NCBI GenBank assembly: GCA_903642325.1
Contig: CAHJWM010000047.1
Coordinates: 1-36,427 of the forward strand
DNA from: Myxococcales bacterium
GTDB taxonomy: Bacteria; Myxococcota_A; Polyangia; Polyangiales; Polyangiaceae
Reading direction: 5' to 3'
Length of the DNA stretch: 36,427 bases
Position numbers and translations under genes: made by a program
In this document: positions 3,752-12,480 of the stretch, in pieces
Layout of the letters: each line of letters opens with the position of its first letter
Position numbering within the stretch: the first letter of the stretch is position 1
The notes under the pieces: generated by a model
Told to the model about the DNA's origin: nothing
The model's input: only the letters and a program-made list of their open reading frames with translations
The model's database searches: none

Positions 3752-5347
3752 ATGAGCCCTTCTTCGGCGCCAGGCTCCGATTCAGGCGGCGCGAAAGCGG
3801 CTACACGAAAGCGCTCGATGGGCGTGCTTGCATGCGCCGCGCTGTCATTGGCTCTTCGCATTCCCAGCCTGAGCTGGGGTTTGCCATTTCTGTTCCATCC
3901 GGACGAGCCAACGAATTTTTCTATCGTGCAGCGAATGCTGAAGCAGCACGACCTGAACCCGCACTTTTTCAAGTATCCATCCCTGTTCTTTTATGCGCAT
4001 GCGCTCGTTCAGGCCGCGCACTACGCGGGCTGTCGCTTGCTCGGGATAGTGCACTCGGTCCAAGCTCTTCCGGAGGTCGACGTTCCAATCGATGGCAGTG
4101 GATTCACGGCCTTGCCCTCGGCATTCTTTGCCGGCCGCCTGCTGTCGCTGGTGTGCGGCGTGGCCCTTGTCTGGATTGCTCATGAGCTCGGGCGGGCCCT
4201 GTCCGAAGACGCTCGGGTCGGCGTTCTAGCAGCGCTATTGGTTGCAGTTTCTCCTGGCACATTGCGTGACACCCGCTGGATGTCGCCGGACGCGCCGGTG
4301 ACCTTGGCTGTCACGTCGACGGTCTTGGCGGCGCTGATCGTCTTACGGACAGGCCGGGGCAAAGACTACGCTTATGCGGCGATCCTTTGCGGAGTCACCG
4401 CCTCCCTCAAGTACAACGGGGCCCTGGTCGGGCTCACCATAGGGATTGCGGCGTTCTTGAGGGAAGGCCGCGGCGCCATTCGAAAGCCGTGGCTCTACGC
4501 CGCCCCCGTCATCGCCGCGTGCTGCTTCGTCTTGACGTCACCCTACGCCCTGCTCGACTTTCGAAATTTCCGGCGTGACTTCGCGAGCGAGGCGGCCCAT
4601 TACGCCACCGGGCATGCGGGGGCGGAAGGCGATACACTCGCGTACTATTGCCGCTATCTATTGGAGGGGGAGGGCCTCGGCGCAGTGTTCGCGCTGGGCG
4701 GTGTCGTGCTCGGGGCCGTACGCCGAAATCGTGGGGTGTTGTTACTCAGTAGCTTTTGCGTCGTCTACTTCTGTTTCATCAACTCTTTCGTCACGCGGAA
4801 TGGCCGCACTATCGTACCCTTGATCCCTGTCTCGTTGGTGATAGCAGCCTGGTTTGCCGTCGAGTGTGGGAGGGGGTTGGCGGTGATGATGAAAAAGCAT
4901 CGCCTTGGCCGCGCGCTACGCGGCACGGTGACCATTGCCGCCGTGGCGGCGGTGGTGGGTTATCCGTTGGCACGGTCGATACGAAGCACATTGCCATTGT
5001 TGCGAAAGGATAACCGGCAGCTCGCAGGGGATTGGTTGCAGGCGCACGTACCGCCGCAGGCCCGTATTGCGATTGAACGCTACTCTTGTTACGTCAATCG
5101 AAAGCTTTACGCGCTCAAGGTGACCCGCAACCTATACGAGCTGGATCCGTCGTGGTTGAAGCAGCACGTCGACTACTTGATTTTCGCCGGTGATTCTTTC
5201 AATCGCTACTTGGTCGACCCGGGCCGGTACCGGCGCCAGGCTCAGAAGTACGAGCGCCTGTTCCGAGATTTCGAGCTCGTGCGAACGTTCGATGATTCGC
5301 GTCGTGGCGCCGAAATCCGCATCTATCGCACGGCGCGTGCACCGTGA
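3752..5347 (+). CDS. GT-C type integral membrane glycosyltransferase (PMT/ArnT-like)
   Basis: 531 residues, start ATG 3752. TM1 spans about 25-45, and right after it comes FLFHPDEPTNF with D51-E52, the acidic pair in the first external loop that marks GT-C enzymes of the GT39/GT83 (PMT/ArnT) superfamily. Around ten further hydrophobic segments follow, then from about residue 425 a soluble C-terminal domain. By family it would move a sugar from a polyprenyl-phosphate carrier to an acceptor on the outer face of the inner membrane. Donor and acceptor are unknown. It lies about 10 kb away from the main glycosylation locus and could serve it or act alone. Its stop overlaps a GTG (5344) opening an extended form of the next ORF. 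Confidence 0.85.
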   Translation: MSPSSAPGSDSGGAKAATRKRSMGVLACAALSLALRIPSLSWGLPFLFHPDEPTNFSIVQRMLKQHDLNPHFFKYPSLFFYAHALVQAAHYAGCRLLGIVHSVQALPEVDVPIDGSGFTALPSAFFAGRLLSLVCGVALVWIAHELGRALSEDARVGVLAALLVAVSPGTLRDTRWMSPDAPVTLAVTSTVLAALIVLRTGRGKDYAYAAILCGVTASLKYNGALVGLTIGIAAFLREGRGAIRKPWLYAAPVIAACCFVLTSPYALLDFRNFRRDFASEAAHYATGHAGAEGDTLAYYCRYLLEGEGLGAVFALGGVVLGAVRRNRGVLLLSSFCVVYFCFINSFVTRNGRTIVPLIPVSLVIAAWFAVECGRGLAVMMKKHRLGRALRGTVTIAAVAAVVGYPLARSIRSTLPLLRKDNRQLAGDWLQAHVPPQARIAIERYSCYVNRKLYALKVTRNLYELDPSWLKQHVDYLIFAGDSFNRYLVDPGRYRRQAQKYERLFRDFELVRTFDDSRRGAEIRIYRTARAP

Positions 5348-8062: not shown

Positions 8063-8147
8063 TGGTGCACGAGGAGGGACTTGAACCCCCACGCCTTGCG
8101 GCGCCGGAACCTAAATCCGGTGCGTCTGCCAATTCCGCCACTCGTGC
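8063..8147 (-). tRNA. tRNA-Leu, anticodon UAG
   Basis: Read on the minus strand, the acceptor strand GCACGAG (8147-8141) pairs with CTCGTGC (8073-8067), discriminator A, and the CCA end is encoded (8065-8063). The anticodon stem CCGGA/TCCGG encloses the loop TTTAGGT, giving anticodon TAG, which reads the codon CUA. A long variable arm (GCGCC-GCAA-GGCGT type) and the T loop TTCAAGT confirm a class II leucine tRNA. It is the intact target of the neighbouring integrated element and appears fully functional. Confidence 0.97.
8065..8121 (-). repeat. tRNA-proximal att copy (within tRNA-Leu)
   Basis: This 57-base part of the tRNA gene, from the anticodon stem to the CCA end, is the partner of 6227-6284. 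The left limit of identity at the anticodon stem-loop is a common crossover place for tyrosine integrases. Confidence 0.85.
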
Positions 8148-8333
8148 TGCTCAGGTGGCGGAGGGATAGCGCGAGCGTGCGGATACGTCTAGCAAAAGGG
8201 CCGTCCGACGGGCGGAGCCGTCGGCATTTGTCGGATGATCGCGGCGAGCAGAGCGTGGCCAGCCCGCGCCCAGGGCCGGATGCGCCGACGACGCGCGTCG
8301 CGCGGCGTCGCGCGGGGGTGTACATTGGCATGC
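8148..8333. other. divergent spacer between tRNA-Leu and the histone-fold gene
   Basis: 186 bases that must hold the tRNA promoter (minus) and the promoter of the histone-fold gene (plus). I see no box pair good enough to mark and no other gene. Confidence 0.4.
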
Positions 8334-8849
8334 GTGAGCGAGGCCGAGTTTTTTCGACAATGCACGACGTGCAAGAAGCCGATCGCTCATGGCGCGAGCT
8401 ACTTCAAATGCAGTGTGTCGACGTGTAATCGCCCCAAGCTCGCCCAATTCTTTTGTTCCCTGGCCTGTTGGGATGCGCATCTACCAGAGGCACGCCACCG
8501 CGATGCCTGGGCGGAGCCGGTGAAGGCGCCGACGCGTGAGGCGGTGGAGCGCGAGCAACGGGCCGAGCAAGAACGCGGGGCAGAAGCCAGCGCGAGGAAA
8601 AGCAGCATGAGCGAAGAAGCAGAAAAGCGGCGCCGAGTGGTGGGCGCGCCCACCGCCGACAATTTGCCGCAGGACGTATTGATCGTCGTATCTAAACTGA
8701 AGGCCTACGTGAAAGCGCGCTCCGGTATGAATACCTCGGACGGCGTGATCGACGTCTTGTCGGAAAAGGTCCGCAAGCTGTGCGACGCGGCCGTCGAGGT
8801 CGCGCAGGCCGACGAGCGCAAAACGATCATGGACCGTGATTTCAAGTAG
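8334..8849 (+). CDS. zinc-finger protein with C-terminal histone fold
   Basis: 171 residues from GTG 8334. TTG 8325, three codons earlier with GGGGGTG 4 bases ahead of it, is a real alternative; the ATG at 8330 is out of frame. Residues 10-55 carry eight regular ligands: C10-x2-C13, C26-x4-C31, C41-x3-C45, H49 and H55, a two-zinc ZZ/MYND-like finger (QCTTCKKPIAHG, CSVSTCNR, FFCSLACWDAH). A charged linker (about 60-107) leads to residues 108-171, DVLIVVSKLKAYVKARSG, then a long helix, then ERKTIMDRDF. That helix-loop-helix layout with a final RKT-I-x-x-RD is the histone-fold pattern. Prokaryotic histone-fold proteins with an N-terminal zinc finger have been described as a class in bacteria; I assign it there by eye. 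Likely role is DNA or protein binding in the nucleoid. Confidence 0.7.
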   Translation: MSEAEFFRQCTTCKKPIAHGASYFKCSVSTCNRPKLAQFFCSLACWDAHLPEARHRDAWAEPVKAPTREAVEREQRAEQERGAEASARKSSMSEEAEKRRRVVGAPTADNLPQDVLIVVSKLKAYVKARSGMNTSDGVIDVLSEKVRKLCDAAVEVAQADERKTIMDRDFK

Positions 8850-8964: not shown

Positions 8965-9321
8965 TTACTTGACGTCGAGTAGCTCGACTTCGAATAGCAG
9001 CGTCGCATGCGGCGGGATCACGCCACCTGCACCGCTCGCGCCGTAGCCGAGCTCGGGCGGGATGAGCAAGGTGCGCTTGCTGCCGATTTTCATGCTGGCC
9101 ACGCCTTCATCCCAACCTTTGATGACGCGGCCCGCGCCGATCGGGAAAGTAAACGGCCGACCACGGTCGACCGAGCTATCGAATTTTTCAGCCTTTTTGC
9201 CGTCTATCCACAGCCAACCCGTGTAATGCATGACGCAGGTTTGGCCCTTCGCGGGAGAGGCGCCGGTGCCAAGGTGGGTGTCTTCGTAAGCGAGGCCGCT
9301 TGCCGTCGTGGTCATTGCCAT
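8965..9321 (-). CDS. FKBP-type peptidyl-prolyl cis-trans isomerase
   Basis: 118 residues from ATG 9321 (another ATG at 9315 also fits; the frame could start as far up as 9393 but FKBPs of this type begin with the TTTASGLAYED segment). Family marks in order: VMHYTGWLWIDGKKAEKFDS, RGRPFTFPIGAGRVIKGWDE, GVASMKIGSKRTLLIPPE, LGYGASGAGGVIPPHATLLF, the complete FKBP active-site set of aromatic residues and the central Trp. No signal peptide is present from this start, so it should act in the cytoplasm, speeding proline isomerisation in folding proteins. It faces the histone-fold gene tail to tail, 115 bases apart. Confidence 0.92.
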   Translation of the reverse strand: MAMTTTASGLAYEDTHLGTGASPAKGQTCVMHYTGWLWIDGKKAEKFDSSVDRGRPFTFPIGAGRVIKGWDEGVASMKIGSKRTLLIPPELGYGASGAGGVIPPHATLLFEVELLDVK

Positions 9322-9464
9322 CCAGCGAGTAAAGCCCATTTCGCCGTTGCTCGAAAGTTGGCTGTGCAGCGCGCGAGCCGCTGTGATCGTCAAGCGAGAT
9401 GCGTGGCGTTATGGGACAAGCGGGCTGAAGGATTGACCGAGCTCGCTCGGGAACCTACCCTTCG

Positions 9465-10475
9465 ATGGTGCAGACACTCTTGCCACTGGGTTGCGTGCTG
9501 GCTGGCTTCCTGACCCTGAGCGCGTGCAGTAGCTCGAGCGACGAAGACGCGGCGGCAGGCGTCGGTGCCGCCGGTGCCGCCGGTGCCGAGGGCGGCAGCG
9601 CCGGGGAAGCCGGCGCGGGAGGCAGCGGCGAGAGCGGGCGCGGCGGCGAAGCGAACCTCGCGGAAGTTGCACAGTGGCCCATGCCCAATGCGCCGCATGC
9701 GGGCCTACCCAACACCGAAAAATACGACACCTCCACCCCCGGTGTGGTGCACGATCTCGTTACTGGGCTTGATTGGCTTCAAAATCCGGGCAGCACCCTG
9801 TACTCGCGCGCTGACGCCGTCAGCTACTGCGACGCGCTGTCTCTGGCCGGTAAGGACGACTGGCGTGTGCCCACGTTCATCGAGCTCGTTTCGTTGTTCG
9901 ACGCCGTGCCCAATGATGCCGACCCGCCGCTCTATCTAGCGTCCGTGTTCGAAGCGCGTGACCGCTACTGGTGCAGCACGCCGCCCGTGACCACGAGCAC
10001 GGAACTCGGGCGCATGCTCGCCTTCACGGCAGACACCTGTGGCGCGAAGTCATGCAGCATCGGCGTGTCGGGCGAAAAAGGCGATGCCATCGCGGGCGCC
10101 TTCTGCGTCAGAGGTAGCGCCGCCGCCGCCACCTCGGAGCGCTTCGACATCGAGAGCGATCGGGTCAGCGACACGCTCACCGGCCTCGCCTGGATCACCC
10201 TCCCCTCTGCGATTCAGACGGGGACCCACGCTGAAGCGGTCAGTCGGTGTTCGGCGCTCGGCGATGGCGCACGCCTGCCGAGCGTCAACGAATTGCTCAC
10301 GATTTTCGTACCGCTCCTGGATATGGGCGCTTTTCCGGACTGGCCCAACAGCTTGTTCGGCTGGTCGTCCTCAGCCGCCCCGGCAAAGCCCGGCTCATTT
10401 TGGGCCGCCGCCAGTGGCGGCGCGACCGAGGCCGCCGCCGCCAGCGCCATCAATCGCATCGAGTGCGTGCGCTGA
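9465..10475 (+). CDS. lipoprotein with two DUF1566 (Lcl C-terminal) domains
   Basis: 336 residues, ATG 9465. Signal peptide with lipobox LTLSAC, so Cys21 should be lipidated. Next comes a Gly/Ala/Ser/Glu linker (about 25-65) built from short repeats, common in myxobacterial lipoproteins. Two DUF1566 units follow: residues about 95-215 (VHDLVTGLDWLQNP, CDALSLAGKDDWRVPTFIEL, CSTPP) and about 225-336 (VSDTLTGLAWIT, CSALGDGARLPSVNELL, GWSSSA). Paired cysteines recur in each unit and suggest disulfides in an exported protein. DUF1566 is widespread on surfaces and is related to collagen-like and fimbrial partner domains; no precise function is known. Tail to tail with the pseudouridine synthase gene. 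Confidence 0.85.
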   Translation: MVQTLLPLGCVLAGFLTLSACSSSSDEDAAAGVGAAGAAGAEGGSAGEAGAGGSGESGRGGEANLAEVAQWPMPNAPHAGLPNTEKYDTSTPGVVHDLVTGLDWLQNPGSTLYSRADAVSYCDALSLAGKDDWRVPTFIELVSLFDAVPNDADPPLYLASVFEARDRYWCSTPPVTTSTELGRMLAFTADTCGAKSCSIGVSGEKGDAIAGAFCVRGSAAAATSERFDIESDRVSDTLTGLAWITLPSAIQTGTHAEAVSRCSALGDGARLPSVNELLTIFVPLLDMGAFPDWPNSLFGWSSSAAPAKPGSFWAAASGGATEAAAASAINRIECVR

Positions 10476-10511: not shown

Positions 10512-11432
10512 TCAACGGCTCCGTAAGCGCGACAGCACTTCTAGAAAATCGCTCGGCAACGGCTGCTCGAAGTCGAGCTCCTGGCTCGTGGTCGGGTGCC
10601 GAAAACCAAGTTGCCATGCGTGCAGCATCAAACGCGGAGCCGCTATCGTCGGGTGAGGGTTTTTTTTCGCATAGACGCGCTCACCCACCAATGGATGCCC
10701 AGCCTCCGATAAATGTATGCGGATCTGGTGGGTCCGTCCCGTCTCCAAGCGGCACTCGATGAGCGTCGCTCCATTCAAGGCCTCACGAAAAAACACGTGG
10801 GTGGTCGATTCGCGACCGAGCGCAGGATTGCTCGTCGAGCCGCGCCGACCGTCCCCGCGGTCCTGGATCAGGCGCGAAGATATCGTGCGGTCACGGACAC
10901 TGCCGTGCACGATGGCCCGATAGCGGCGGCGCACCGAGTGCGCGCGGAACTGATTTTTTAGGTCGAGCTTCGCGGCGAGGGAGCGTGCAAACAGCACCAA
11001 ACCCGATGTCTCCTTATCGATCCGATGCACGATGCCGAGCGGTGCCTCCTTCCGGCCGAGCTCCGCGCGCACCAGCTCTTCGAGCGTGCCCGTCTCGTTC
11101 TCGTCATAAGGCACGGTGCTGATGCCCGCAGGCTTTTGCACGACGAGCACGTGAGCGTCCACGTGTACGATGGCGCCCGTGGGCAAGCGAGGCCCTTCCT
11201 GCTTTCGTGCCGCCGCCATGCGCAAATCGATCCGTGCGCCGCCCGGCACGCGCAACGCCGTCTCGCGCGCCACACTTCCGTTTACCGACACCTTGCCCGT
11301 CTCGATCAGCCGGCGTACCTCCGCCCAGCTCGCACCCTCGTGCTGCTCGCGCAGCAAGCGATCGAGCGGTAGCGCGCCGCGACCCAGGGCCGCCGCAAAA
11401 GAAAGATCCTTGAAGACGAAGCGCGGCTCCAT
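10512..11432 (-). CDS. RluA-family pseudouridine synthase
   Basis: 306 residues from ATG 11432, chosen because GGGGTGG lies about 5 bases upstream; GTG 11480 would overlap the preceding gene. An S4-like RNA-binding domain comes first (LPLDRLLREQ, RRLIETGKVSVNG). The catalytic segment APLGIVHRIDKETSGLVLFA holds the essential aspartate of the HRLD-type motif, followed by RRRYRAIVHG, GRTHQIRIHL and GHPLVGERVY, all family hallmarks. It converts chosen uridines in rRNA or tRNA to pseudouridine; which positions cannot be read here, since RluA, RluC and RluD share this core. It follows the secreted hydrolase-like gene on the same strand. Confidence 0.9.
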   Translation of the reverse strand: MEPRFVFKDLSFAAALGRGALPLDRLLREQHEGASWAEVRRLIETGKVSVNGSVARETALRVPGGARIDLRMAAARKQEGPRLPTGAIVHVDAHVLVVQKPAGISTVPYDENETGTLEELVRAELGRKEAPLGIVHRIDKETSGLVLFARSLAAKLDLKNQFRAHSVRRRYRAIVHGSVRDRTISSRLIQDRGDGRRGSTSNPALGRESTTHVFFREALNGATLIECRLETGRTHQIRIHLSEAGHPLVGERVYAKKNPHPTIAAPRLMLHAWQLGFRHPTTSQELDFEQPLPSDFLEVLSRLRSR

Positions 11433-11463
11433 CAACGCCACCCCGAGCGGCCGAGGGTCGCGC

Positions 11464-12480
11464 TCAATCGCCGCGCCCACGAGGGGAGCTCCAACGCGGC
11501 CTCACGTGCACTTTGAGCACGTCTCGGTACTCGCCGATCTGCGCGCAGTGATCCATCTTGTCGTTGCCGGAGAAGCCGCGCACGTAGAAATTGCCCTTGG
11601 AATAGCGAGAAATCATGTCCATACCGAGCGGGCCTACGCCGTGCGCCTCATGCGAAACGCCGCCGCACTCGTGCACCAAATAATCTGCCGTCTCGGTCGT
11701 CGAAGCGTAGCCGGGCGGGATGATCGACGAGTGACTCACGAACATCAGCGTCTCGCCGGCCGCCGCGCGCTTGGCGAACTCCGTAAACATCGAGATCTGC
11801 GCGCCGTTGATGGCGGGGCCCACGTACCCGCAGTGCAAGCCGTCGAGCAGAATCACCGTGTCGACGTGACGCTTGGCATAGTCCCGGGCCAAAATCCATT
11901 GCACCGCGCCGTAGCCCGCGCTCCATGCGCTCAAGCCAATATGCCGCGCATGCGCCGCCTTCCGGCCGGCTTTCTTGGCAACCGCTCGCTCGACGCTCTC
12001 GATCAAACGCGGGAACACGTCGGGGGCTTGGAATGCATCCTCGTACGCGCCGGAGCCGATACCCAGATCGATGCCGACCAACACCGCCCCGTCCATCACC
12101 GTCACCCACTCCTTGCGCACGGCCTCGTGACCATGAAAATGGATCATGACGTCGAAATCACCCCTGGAAGTGATACCGCCGTGCTTGGGCATGATGAATT
12201 GGCCCATCCCAATGCCGCCCTGCCACTTGTCGTACACGCCGAAGCCCGGATCCGGCGTGTCGCACGGGTTGACGCCGCGCGCCGCCACTGTCTTCTGGAT
12301 CTGAGTGTCGGCGCTGGGTTTCTTCGCCACGTACGAAGCGGTGCGGGTGGGGCGGGGTGGGGGCGCTCGCGGCGCGGGCTCGGCCAAGACAGAGGGCGCG
12401 ACAGCGAGTCCAATGAGTGTACCGCGGAGCCCTCGCAGCAACGCACGCACACGGGGTGGACTGGAAATCGTAGGTCGCAC
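11464..12480 (-). CDS. secreted alpha/beta-hydrolase-like protein
   Basis: About 338 residues. The long frame opens with TTG 12489, but GAGGGCAGG sits about 10 bases before GTG 12480, which I prefer. A signal peptide is clear (LIGLAVAPSVLAEPA), followed by a Pro/Arg-rich stretch. The body shows alpha/beta-hydrolase features: FDVMIHFHGHEAVRKEW (oxyanion region), and HIGLSAWSAGYGAVQWIL, a serine in a nucleophile elbow (WSAGYG). Later come DTVILLDGLHCGY, MFVSHSSIIPPGY and GNDKMDHCAQ, where an aspartate and a histidine could complete the triad. The likely site is the periplasm or outside. Substrate unknown; esterase or depolymerase activity is possible. Relatives that I recall are unnamed hypothetical proteins of myxobacteria. 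Confidence 0.6.
   Translation of the reverse strand: MRPTISSPPRVRALLRGLRGTLIGLAVAPSVLAEPAPRAPPPRPTRTASYVAKKPSADTQIQKTVAARGVNPCDTPDPGFGVYDKWQGGIGMGQFIMPKHGGITSRGDFDVMIHFHGHEAVRKEWVTVMDGAVLVGIDLGIGSGAYEDAFQAPDVFPRLIESVERAVAKKAGRKAAHARHIGLSAWSAGYGAVQWILARDYAKRHVDTVILLDGLHCGYVGPAINGAQISMFTEFAKRAAAGETLMFVSHSSIIPPGYASTTETADYLVHECGGVSHEAHGVGPLGMDMISRYSKGNFYVRGFSGNDKMDHCAQIGEYRDVLKVHVRPRWSSPRGRGD

What the first reader, a model, noticed from the sequence alone, without database searches (positions are those of the whole stretch)
8334..8849. Bacterial histone-fold protein with an N-terminal two-zinc finger
Seen: eight regularly spaced Cys/His ligands (C10 to H55), a charged linker, then a 64-residue end with DVLIVVSKLKAYVKARSG, a long helix and ERKTIMDRDF. 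Known: RKT near the end of the second helix and an RD start to the third are histone-fold hallmarks, and bacterial histone-like proteins with a zinc finger have been proposed as a class. Inferred: it binds DNA or nucleoid partners. The third helix looks very short.
Basis: partly seen in the sequence, partly recalled or inferred. Interest (0 to 1): 0.75.

Follow-up and report, generated by a model that had tools for sequence, protein, structure and literature searches.

The report
Zinc-finger bacterial histone (ZZ histone)
This gene encodes a small bacterial protein that joins a two-zinc finger to a DNA-binding histone domain; it belongs to the already published but experimentally almost untouched "ZZ histone" class, and its relatives show that the zinc finger also exists without the histone, and with two histones in a row.

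Summary
Window 8334-8849 (+) encodes a 171-residue protein with eight regularly spaced zinc ligands (C10, C13, C26, C31, C41, C45, H49, H55), a mixed-charge linker and a C-terminal histone fold. The histone half matches the crystallised Bdellovibrio histone HBb (E 6e-11). It keeps 9 of HBb's 10 important DNA-contact residues and the RD clamp. All eight ligands are invariant in 20 relatives. The zinc-finger model most resembles ZZ domains. The short third helix defines the alpha3-histone family. The protein lacks the residues that make face-to-face histones tetramers, so a DNA-bending dimer is most likely. It is the only histone-fold gene detected in this genome, which makes "reads another histone's tail" unlikely here. 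It is therefore a new member of a known kind. Three by-products were not found in the papers I read: (1) ZZ proteins with two histone folds in tandem; (2) histone-less ZZ proteins in several lineages, one type ending in a conserved VILRR tail; (3) a conserved RR[IV]V motif in the otherwise unalignable linker (54 of 86 proteins, about 7 expected), present here at residues 99-103.

The parts
8334..8849 (+). ZZ histone gene, 171 aa, GTG start, TAG stop
   Evidence: translation; only copy in the genome; start position supported by relatives
8361..8498 (+). ZZ-like cross-brace zinc finger, residues 10-55; by homology to the published class, site 1 = C10, C13, C41, C45 and site 2 = C26, C31, H49, H55
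   Evidence: eight ligands invariant in 20 homologues; model matches ZZ domains of p62, CBP/p300 and HERC2; published ligand positions agree at seven of eight sites
8532..8666 (+). variable mixed-charge linker, residues 67-111
   Evidence: mean majority-residue share 0.37 against 0.74 and 0.75 in the two domains; net charge 0
8628..8642 (+). conserved linker motif RRRVV, residues 99-103
   Evidence: RR-hydrophobic motif in 54 of 86 linkers, shuffled mean 7.3, maximum 15
8667..8846 (+). alpha3-type histone fold, residues 112-171, with RKT and RD clamp
   Evidence: phmmer to HBb 8cmp 6e-11; PF00808 21.9 bits, cut-off 21.4; 9 of 10 HBb DNA-contact residues identical

Best explanation
A ZZ histone. 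The C-terminal alpha3-type histone fold forms a homodimer of the HBb kind, binds the DNA backbone without sequence preference through helix 1, loop 1 and the RKT/RD region, and bends DNA. Each subunit carries, on a flexible linker, an N-terminal two-zinc ZZ-like finger. The finger is a protein-binding module that brings a conserved partner, not yet identified, to the bent DNA. It is a low-copy DNA-bound adaptor or regulator rather than the bulk packager, which in this cell would be the four HU/IHF-family proteins. Shown: the domains, ligand invariance, DNA-contact residue conservation, absence of a second detected histone, presence of HU-family genes. Inferred: zinc binding, dimerisation, DNA bending, the partner-binding role of the ZZ half, and low abundance (reported only for the Bdellovibrio relative).
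For: Histone half: HBb crystal chains are the best hits (6e-11; 2e-17 with the profile). N22, R57, S9, T53, S24, K10, K12, K52 and K16 of HBb are identical here; only T8 is V. The RD clamp R162/D169 is invariant. Face-to-face tetramer residues R49 and N53 of HLp are V156 and D160 here, each kept in only 1 of 20 aligned proteins, which favours a dimer. ZZ half: ligands invariant; ZZ domains of p62, CBP/p300 and HERC2 dominate the structural matches, p62 at Z 4.8, 50 residues, 3.2 A, 32% identity. The ZZ half is as conserved as the histone half and persists without a histone in several clades, so it has a function of its own. Four HU/IHF-family genes in the same genome. Bdellovibrio's ZZ histone is low in transcript and protein (PMC11390915).
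Against: The histone half of the AlphaFold model is of only moderate to low confidence (block means about 60-75, falling below 50 in the last 5 residues; eight-row alignment), and no dimer could be modelled. Dimerisation and DNA binding of any ZZ histone are untested as far as I found. The ZZ half does not reach the Pfam ZZ model and shows weak sequence resemblance to other treble-clef fingers (MYND, FCS, C1). Gene neighbourhood is not conserved, so no partner is suggested by context.
Confidence: 0.72

Rival explanations
1. The ZZ finger reads the N-terminal tail of another histone, as eukaryotic ZZ domains read histone H3, and places the protein on histone-coated DNA.
For: Structural similarity to histone-tail-reading ZZ domains. 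Many Bdellovibrionota genomes give a separate histone-only match as well.
Against: No second histone was detected in this 99% complete genome. Published: the H3-pocket residues are not conserved in bacterial ZZ domains and only half of ZZ-histone proteomes hold a second histone (PMC11390915). ZZ-only proteins occur in genomes with no histone match to the family profile.
Confidence: 0.06
2. The zinc finger is a second nucleic-acid-binding element, so the protein clamps DNA or RNA by both ends.
For: The ZZ half is slightly basic (9 K/R, 6 D/E) with conserved R54, R56 and an RRxV motif in the linker.
Against: The fold class matched (ZZ) is known mainly for protein binding (general knowledge). Conserved non-ligand positions include many that are not basic (V28, F40, A48, P51, W59, A60).
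Confidence: 0.12
3. A histone-fold protein without a DNA role (as suggested for some DUF1931-type histones), using the histone fold only for dimerisation.
For: Low expression of the Bdellovibrio relative (PMC11390915). Bd3044, a less abundant second histone-fold protein, does not replace HBb (PMC10627809).
Against: DNA-contact residues are kept: 9 of 10 identical, most near-invariant across relatives.
Confidence: 0.1

Closest known systems
ZZ histones (Schwab et al. 2024, PMC11390915; example D0LYE7 of Haliangium ochraceum; Bdellovibrio Bd3044 is by inference its ZZ histone)
   Same: Architecture, alpha3 histone fold, and ligand positions C10, C13, C26, C31, C41, H49, H55 of the published profile.
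   Different: The paper prints the eighth ligand as C43; here and in all relatives aligned it is C45. No functional difference detected.
HBb (Bd0055), bacterial dimer histone, PDB 8cmp, 8fvx, 9ezz
   Same: Histone fold, RD clamp, 9 of 10 DNA-contact residues, short alpha3.
   Different: HBb has no zinc finger and is abundant and essential; T8 is V here.
HLp, face-to-face histone of Leptospira perolatii, PDB 9qt0
   Same: Histone fold and RD clamp (E 2.6e-8).
   Different: Tetramer residues R49 and N53 are absent here.
Eukaryotic ZZ domains (p62/SQSTM1, CBP/p300, HERC2)
   Same: Cross-brace two-zinc fold in the model (Z 3.9-4.8).
   Different: Ligand spacings C-x4-C and C-x3-C; Pfam ZZ model not among the hits; H3 pocket reported not conserved.

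Membership tests
ZZ histones (alpha3 family) | N-terminal zinc finger with a C4 and a C2H2 site at the published positions | tested here: met
   Seven of eight positions agree with the published profile and the eighth (printed C43) is C45 here; all eight invariant in 20 homologues. Zinc itself not tested.
ZZ histones (alpha3 family) | C-terminal bacterial-dimer-like histone fold with truncated alpha3 | tested here: met
   HBb is the best hit; protein ends one residue after RDF.
Histone fold (PF00808) | Match above curated cut-off | tested here: met
   21.9 bits against 21.4; genome-level 23 bits.
Bacterial dimer histones (HBb) | DNA-contact residues and RKT with RD clamp | tested here: met
   9 of 10 contacts identical, R162 and D169 invariant. 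It is not filed as a bacterial dimer because of the added zinc finger.
Bacterial dimer histones (HBb) | Forms a dimer that bends DNA | not testable with these tools
   No multimer prediction or experiment available.
Face-to-face histones | R48/R49 and N52/N53 tetramer residues | tested here: not met
   V156 and D160; the FtF residue in 1 of 20 proteins at each site.
DUF1931 (PF09123) | Profile match | tested here: not met
   No match in the whole genome at E <= 1.
Eukaryotic-type ZZ domain | ZZ fold | tested here: inconclusive
   ZZ domains dominate the structural matches but at Z below 5; the Pfam ZZ model did not appear among hits.

The most novel reading that the evidence does not exclude
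The ZZ finger, not the histone, is the core of an undescribed bacterial partner-binding system: the same finger is deployed alone, with a VILRR tail, fused to one histone fold, or fused to a tandem histone doublet, and the linker motif RR[IV]V is a second docking site. The histone then serves as one of several ways to deliver the ZZ partner to DNA.
Probability: 0.3. Interest if true: 0.7.

Novelty: new member of a known kind. Interest (0 to 1): 0.42.

Why it matters
Bacterial histones are a recent field, and ZZ histones are among its least-tested classes. This member is useful because it is the only histone detected in its genome, which separates the ZZ half from tail-reading of another histone. 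The family around it offers natural single-domain versions (ZZ only) and natural candidates for fused dimers (ZZ plus two histone folds), which would make the roles of the two halves directly testable.

Tried and rejected
Conserved operon: 21 loci compared; the only shared clusters were reverse-strand shadow frames and common families (ABC transporter, kinase), so no partner gene was found. Phage or plasmid origin: no match. Pfam ZZ or another named finger: only sub-threshold hits to several treble-clef families. Foldseek on the window model gave nothing below E 0.2, and the histone half was not ranked there. A natural tandem relative (L003) was folded to look for an intramolecular handshake dimer; confidence was too low (mean pLDDT 60, second copy mostly below 50) to judge. 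Its first histone copy does match HBb best (Z 6.0, 2.8 A over 63 residues). In-frame ATG at 8235 as the true start: rejected on the start positions of relatives.

Full report
Check of the observation. The frame 8334-8849 on the + strand gives 171 residues with the eight ligands, the linker and the C-terminal block exactly as written. It is a conserved gene: 23 of 59 relatives and 154 of 379 genomes drawn from the phylum hold a match. In an alignment of 20 the eight ligands C10, C13, C26, C31, C41, C45, H49 and H55 never vary, nor do K121, R147, R162, T164, R168 and D169. The two domains are equally conserved (mean majority share 0.74 and 0.75) and the linker is not (0.37). Relatives start 6-20 residues before the first Cys, which supports the GTG at 8334 rather than the ATG at 8235.

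What it is. The C-terminal half is a histone fold: Pfam PF00808 above cut-off, phmmer to HBb 8cmp 6e-11 and to HLp 9qt0 2.6e-8, and 2e-17 to HBb with the family profile, with archaeal HTkC, HmvA and HMfB following. Mapped onto HBb by that alignment, nine of the ten residues named as important DNA contacts (N22, R57, S9, T53, S24, K10, K12, K52, K16) are identical and T8 is Val. The RD clamp R51/D58 and its helper D49 are kept (PMC11317129). The face-to-face tetramer residues R49 and N53 of HLp are V156 and D160 (PMC12701072). This points to an HBb-like dimer, not a tetramer.

The N-terminal half. The AlphaFold model is confident for most of residues 1-90 and moderate to low for the histone half. 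Among chains re-aligned to it, ZZ domains dominate: p62 Z 4.8, CBP 4.5, p300 4.2, HERC2 3.9 over about 50 residues. These Z values are low in absolute terms, and by sequence the finger shows only weak resemblance to several treble-clef families. I therefore call it ZZ-like, following the published name.

Comparison with the known. Schwab et al. 2024 (PMC11390915) define ZZ histones as an N-terminal ZZ-type finger plus a bacterial-dimer-like histone fold within the alpha3 family. Their profile ligands are C10, C13, C41, C43 and C26, C31, H49, H55. The present protein agrees at seven positions; the eighth is C45 here and in all relatives aligned, so the printed C43 may be a slip (not checked against D0LYE7). 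Hocher et al. 2023 (PMC10627809) list Bd3044 as a longer, less abundant second histone of Bdellovibrio; that it is the same protein as the ZZ histone of Schwab et al. is my inference.

How it probably works. The genome is 99% complete and holds no other histone-fold gene that PF00808, DUF1931 or the family profile can find, but four HU/IHF-family genes. So the ZZ half is unlikely to depend on a second histone here. The most likely role is a low-copy DNA-bound adaptor: the histone dimer bends DNA and two ZZ fingers on flexible linkers recruit a protein. Neighbouring genes give no hint: 21 loci share no operon. Zinc binding, dimerisation, bending and the partner are inferred, not shown.

By-products of the comparison. 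Across the loci fetched, 93 distinct proteins have ZZ plus one histone fold, 34 have ZZ without a histone, and 2 have ZZ plus two histone folds in tandem (L003 and L025). The fetched set was partly chosen for odd architectures, so these are not frequencies. The histone-less group has short forms (mostly 66-77 aa, Myxococcota and Bdellovibrionota) and, in Bdellovibrionota, forms of 105-130 aa that end in a VILRR-like tail (13 of 15, shuffled mean 0.2). A ZZ tree, weakly supported because the domain is short, places the histone-less forms in several separate groups among ZZ histones (15 changes, 31 or more in shuffles). A few ZZ-only calls near contig ends (L088, possibly L102) may be truncated. 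The linkers of ZZ histones carry an RR-hydrophobic-V motif in 54 of 86 (shuffled mean 7.3, maximum 15); here it is RRRVV at residues 99-103. The pattern was written after looking at the linkers and shuffling ignores relatedness, so the excess is suggestive, not a formal test. I did not find tandem ZZ histones in the main text of the 2024 survey or a 2026 review of double histone folds, but supplements were not readable.

In Bdellovibrionota (the phylum of L006) 226 of 241 genomes matched the family profile, by a ZZ half, a histone half or both.

Verdict. The observation and its interpretation both hold. It is a new member of a known but little-tested class, with some apparently unreported architecture variants in its family.

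Noticed in passing
L003:4998-5708 and L025:1492-2247: ZZ finger followed by two histone folds in one chain, a natural candidate for a fused histone dimer; not found in the papers read.
   Followed up: partly
L005, L007, L008, L028, L031, L096-L100, L158-L163: Stand-alone ZZ proteins of 66-75 aa without a histone, some in genomes where no histone was detected by the family profile.
   Followed up: partly
L006 and L144-L157: Bdellovibrionota ZZ proteins of about 105-130 aa with a conserved basic C-terminal tail (VILRR) instead of the histone fold; several of these genomes hold a separate histone match.
   Followed up: partly
window 8628-8642: RR[IV]V motif recurrent in the linkers of ZZ histones though the linkers do not otherwise align; function unknown.
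   Followed up: partly
window 8063-8147 (-) and 8965-9393 (-): tRNA-Leu gene upstream and an FKBP-type prolyl isomerase gene downstream, on the opposite strand; the neighbourhood is not conserved in relatives.
   Followed up: yes
window 3752-5347, 9465-10475, 10512-11480: PMT-type mannosyltransferase, Lcl C-terminal domain protein and RNA pseudouridine synthase.
   Followed up: no
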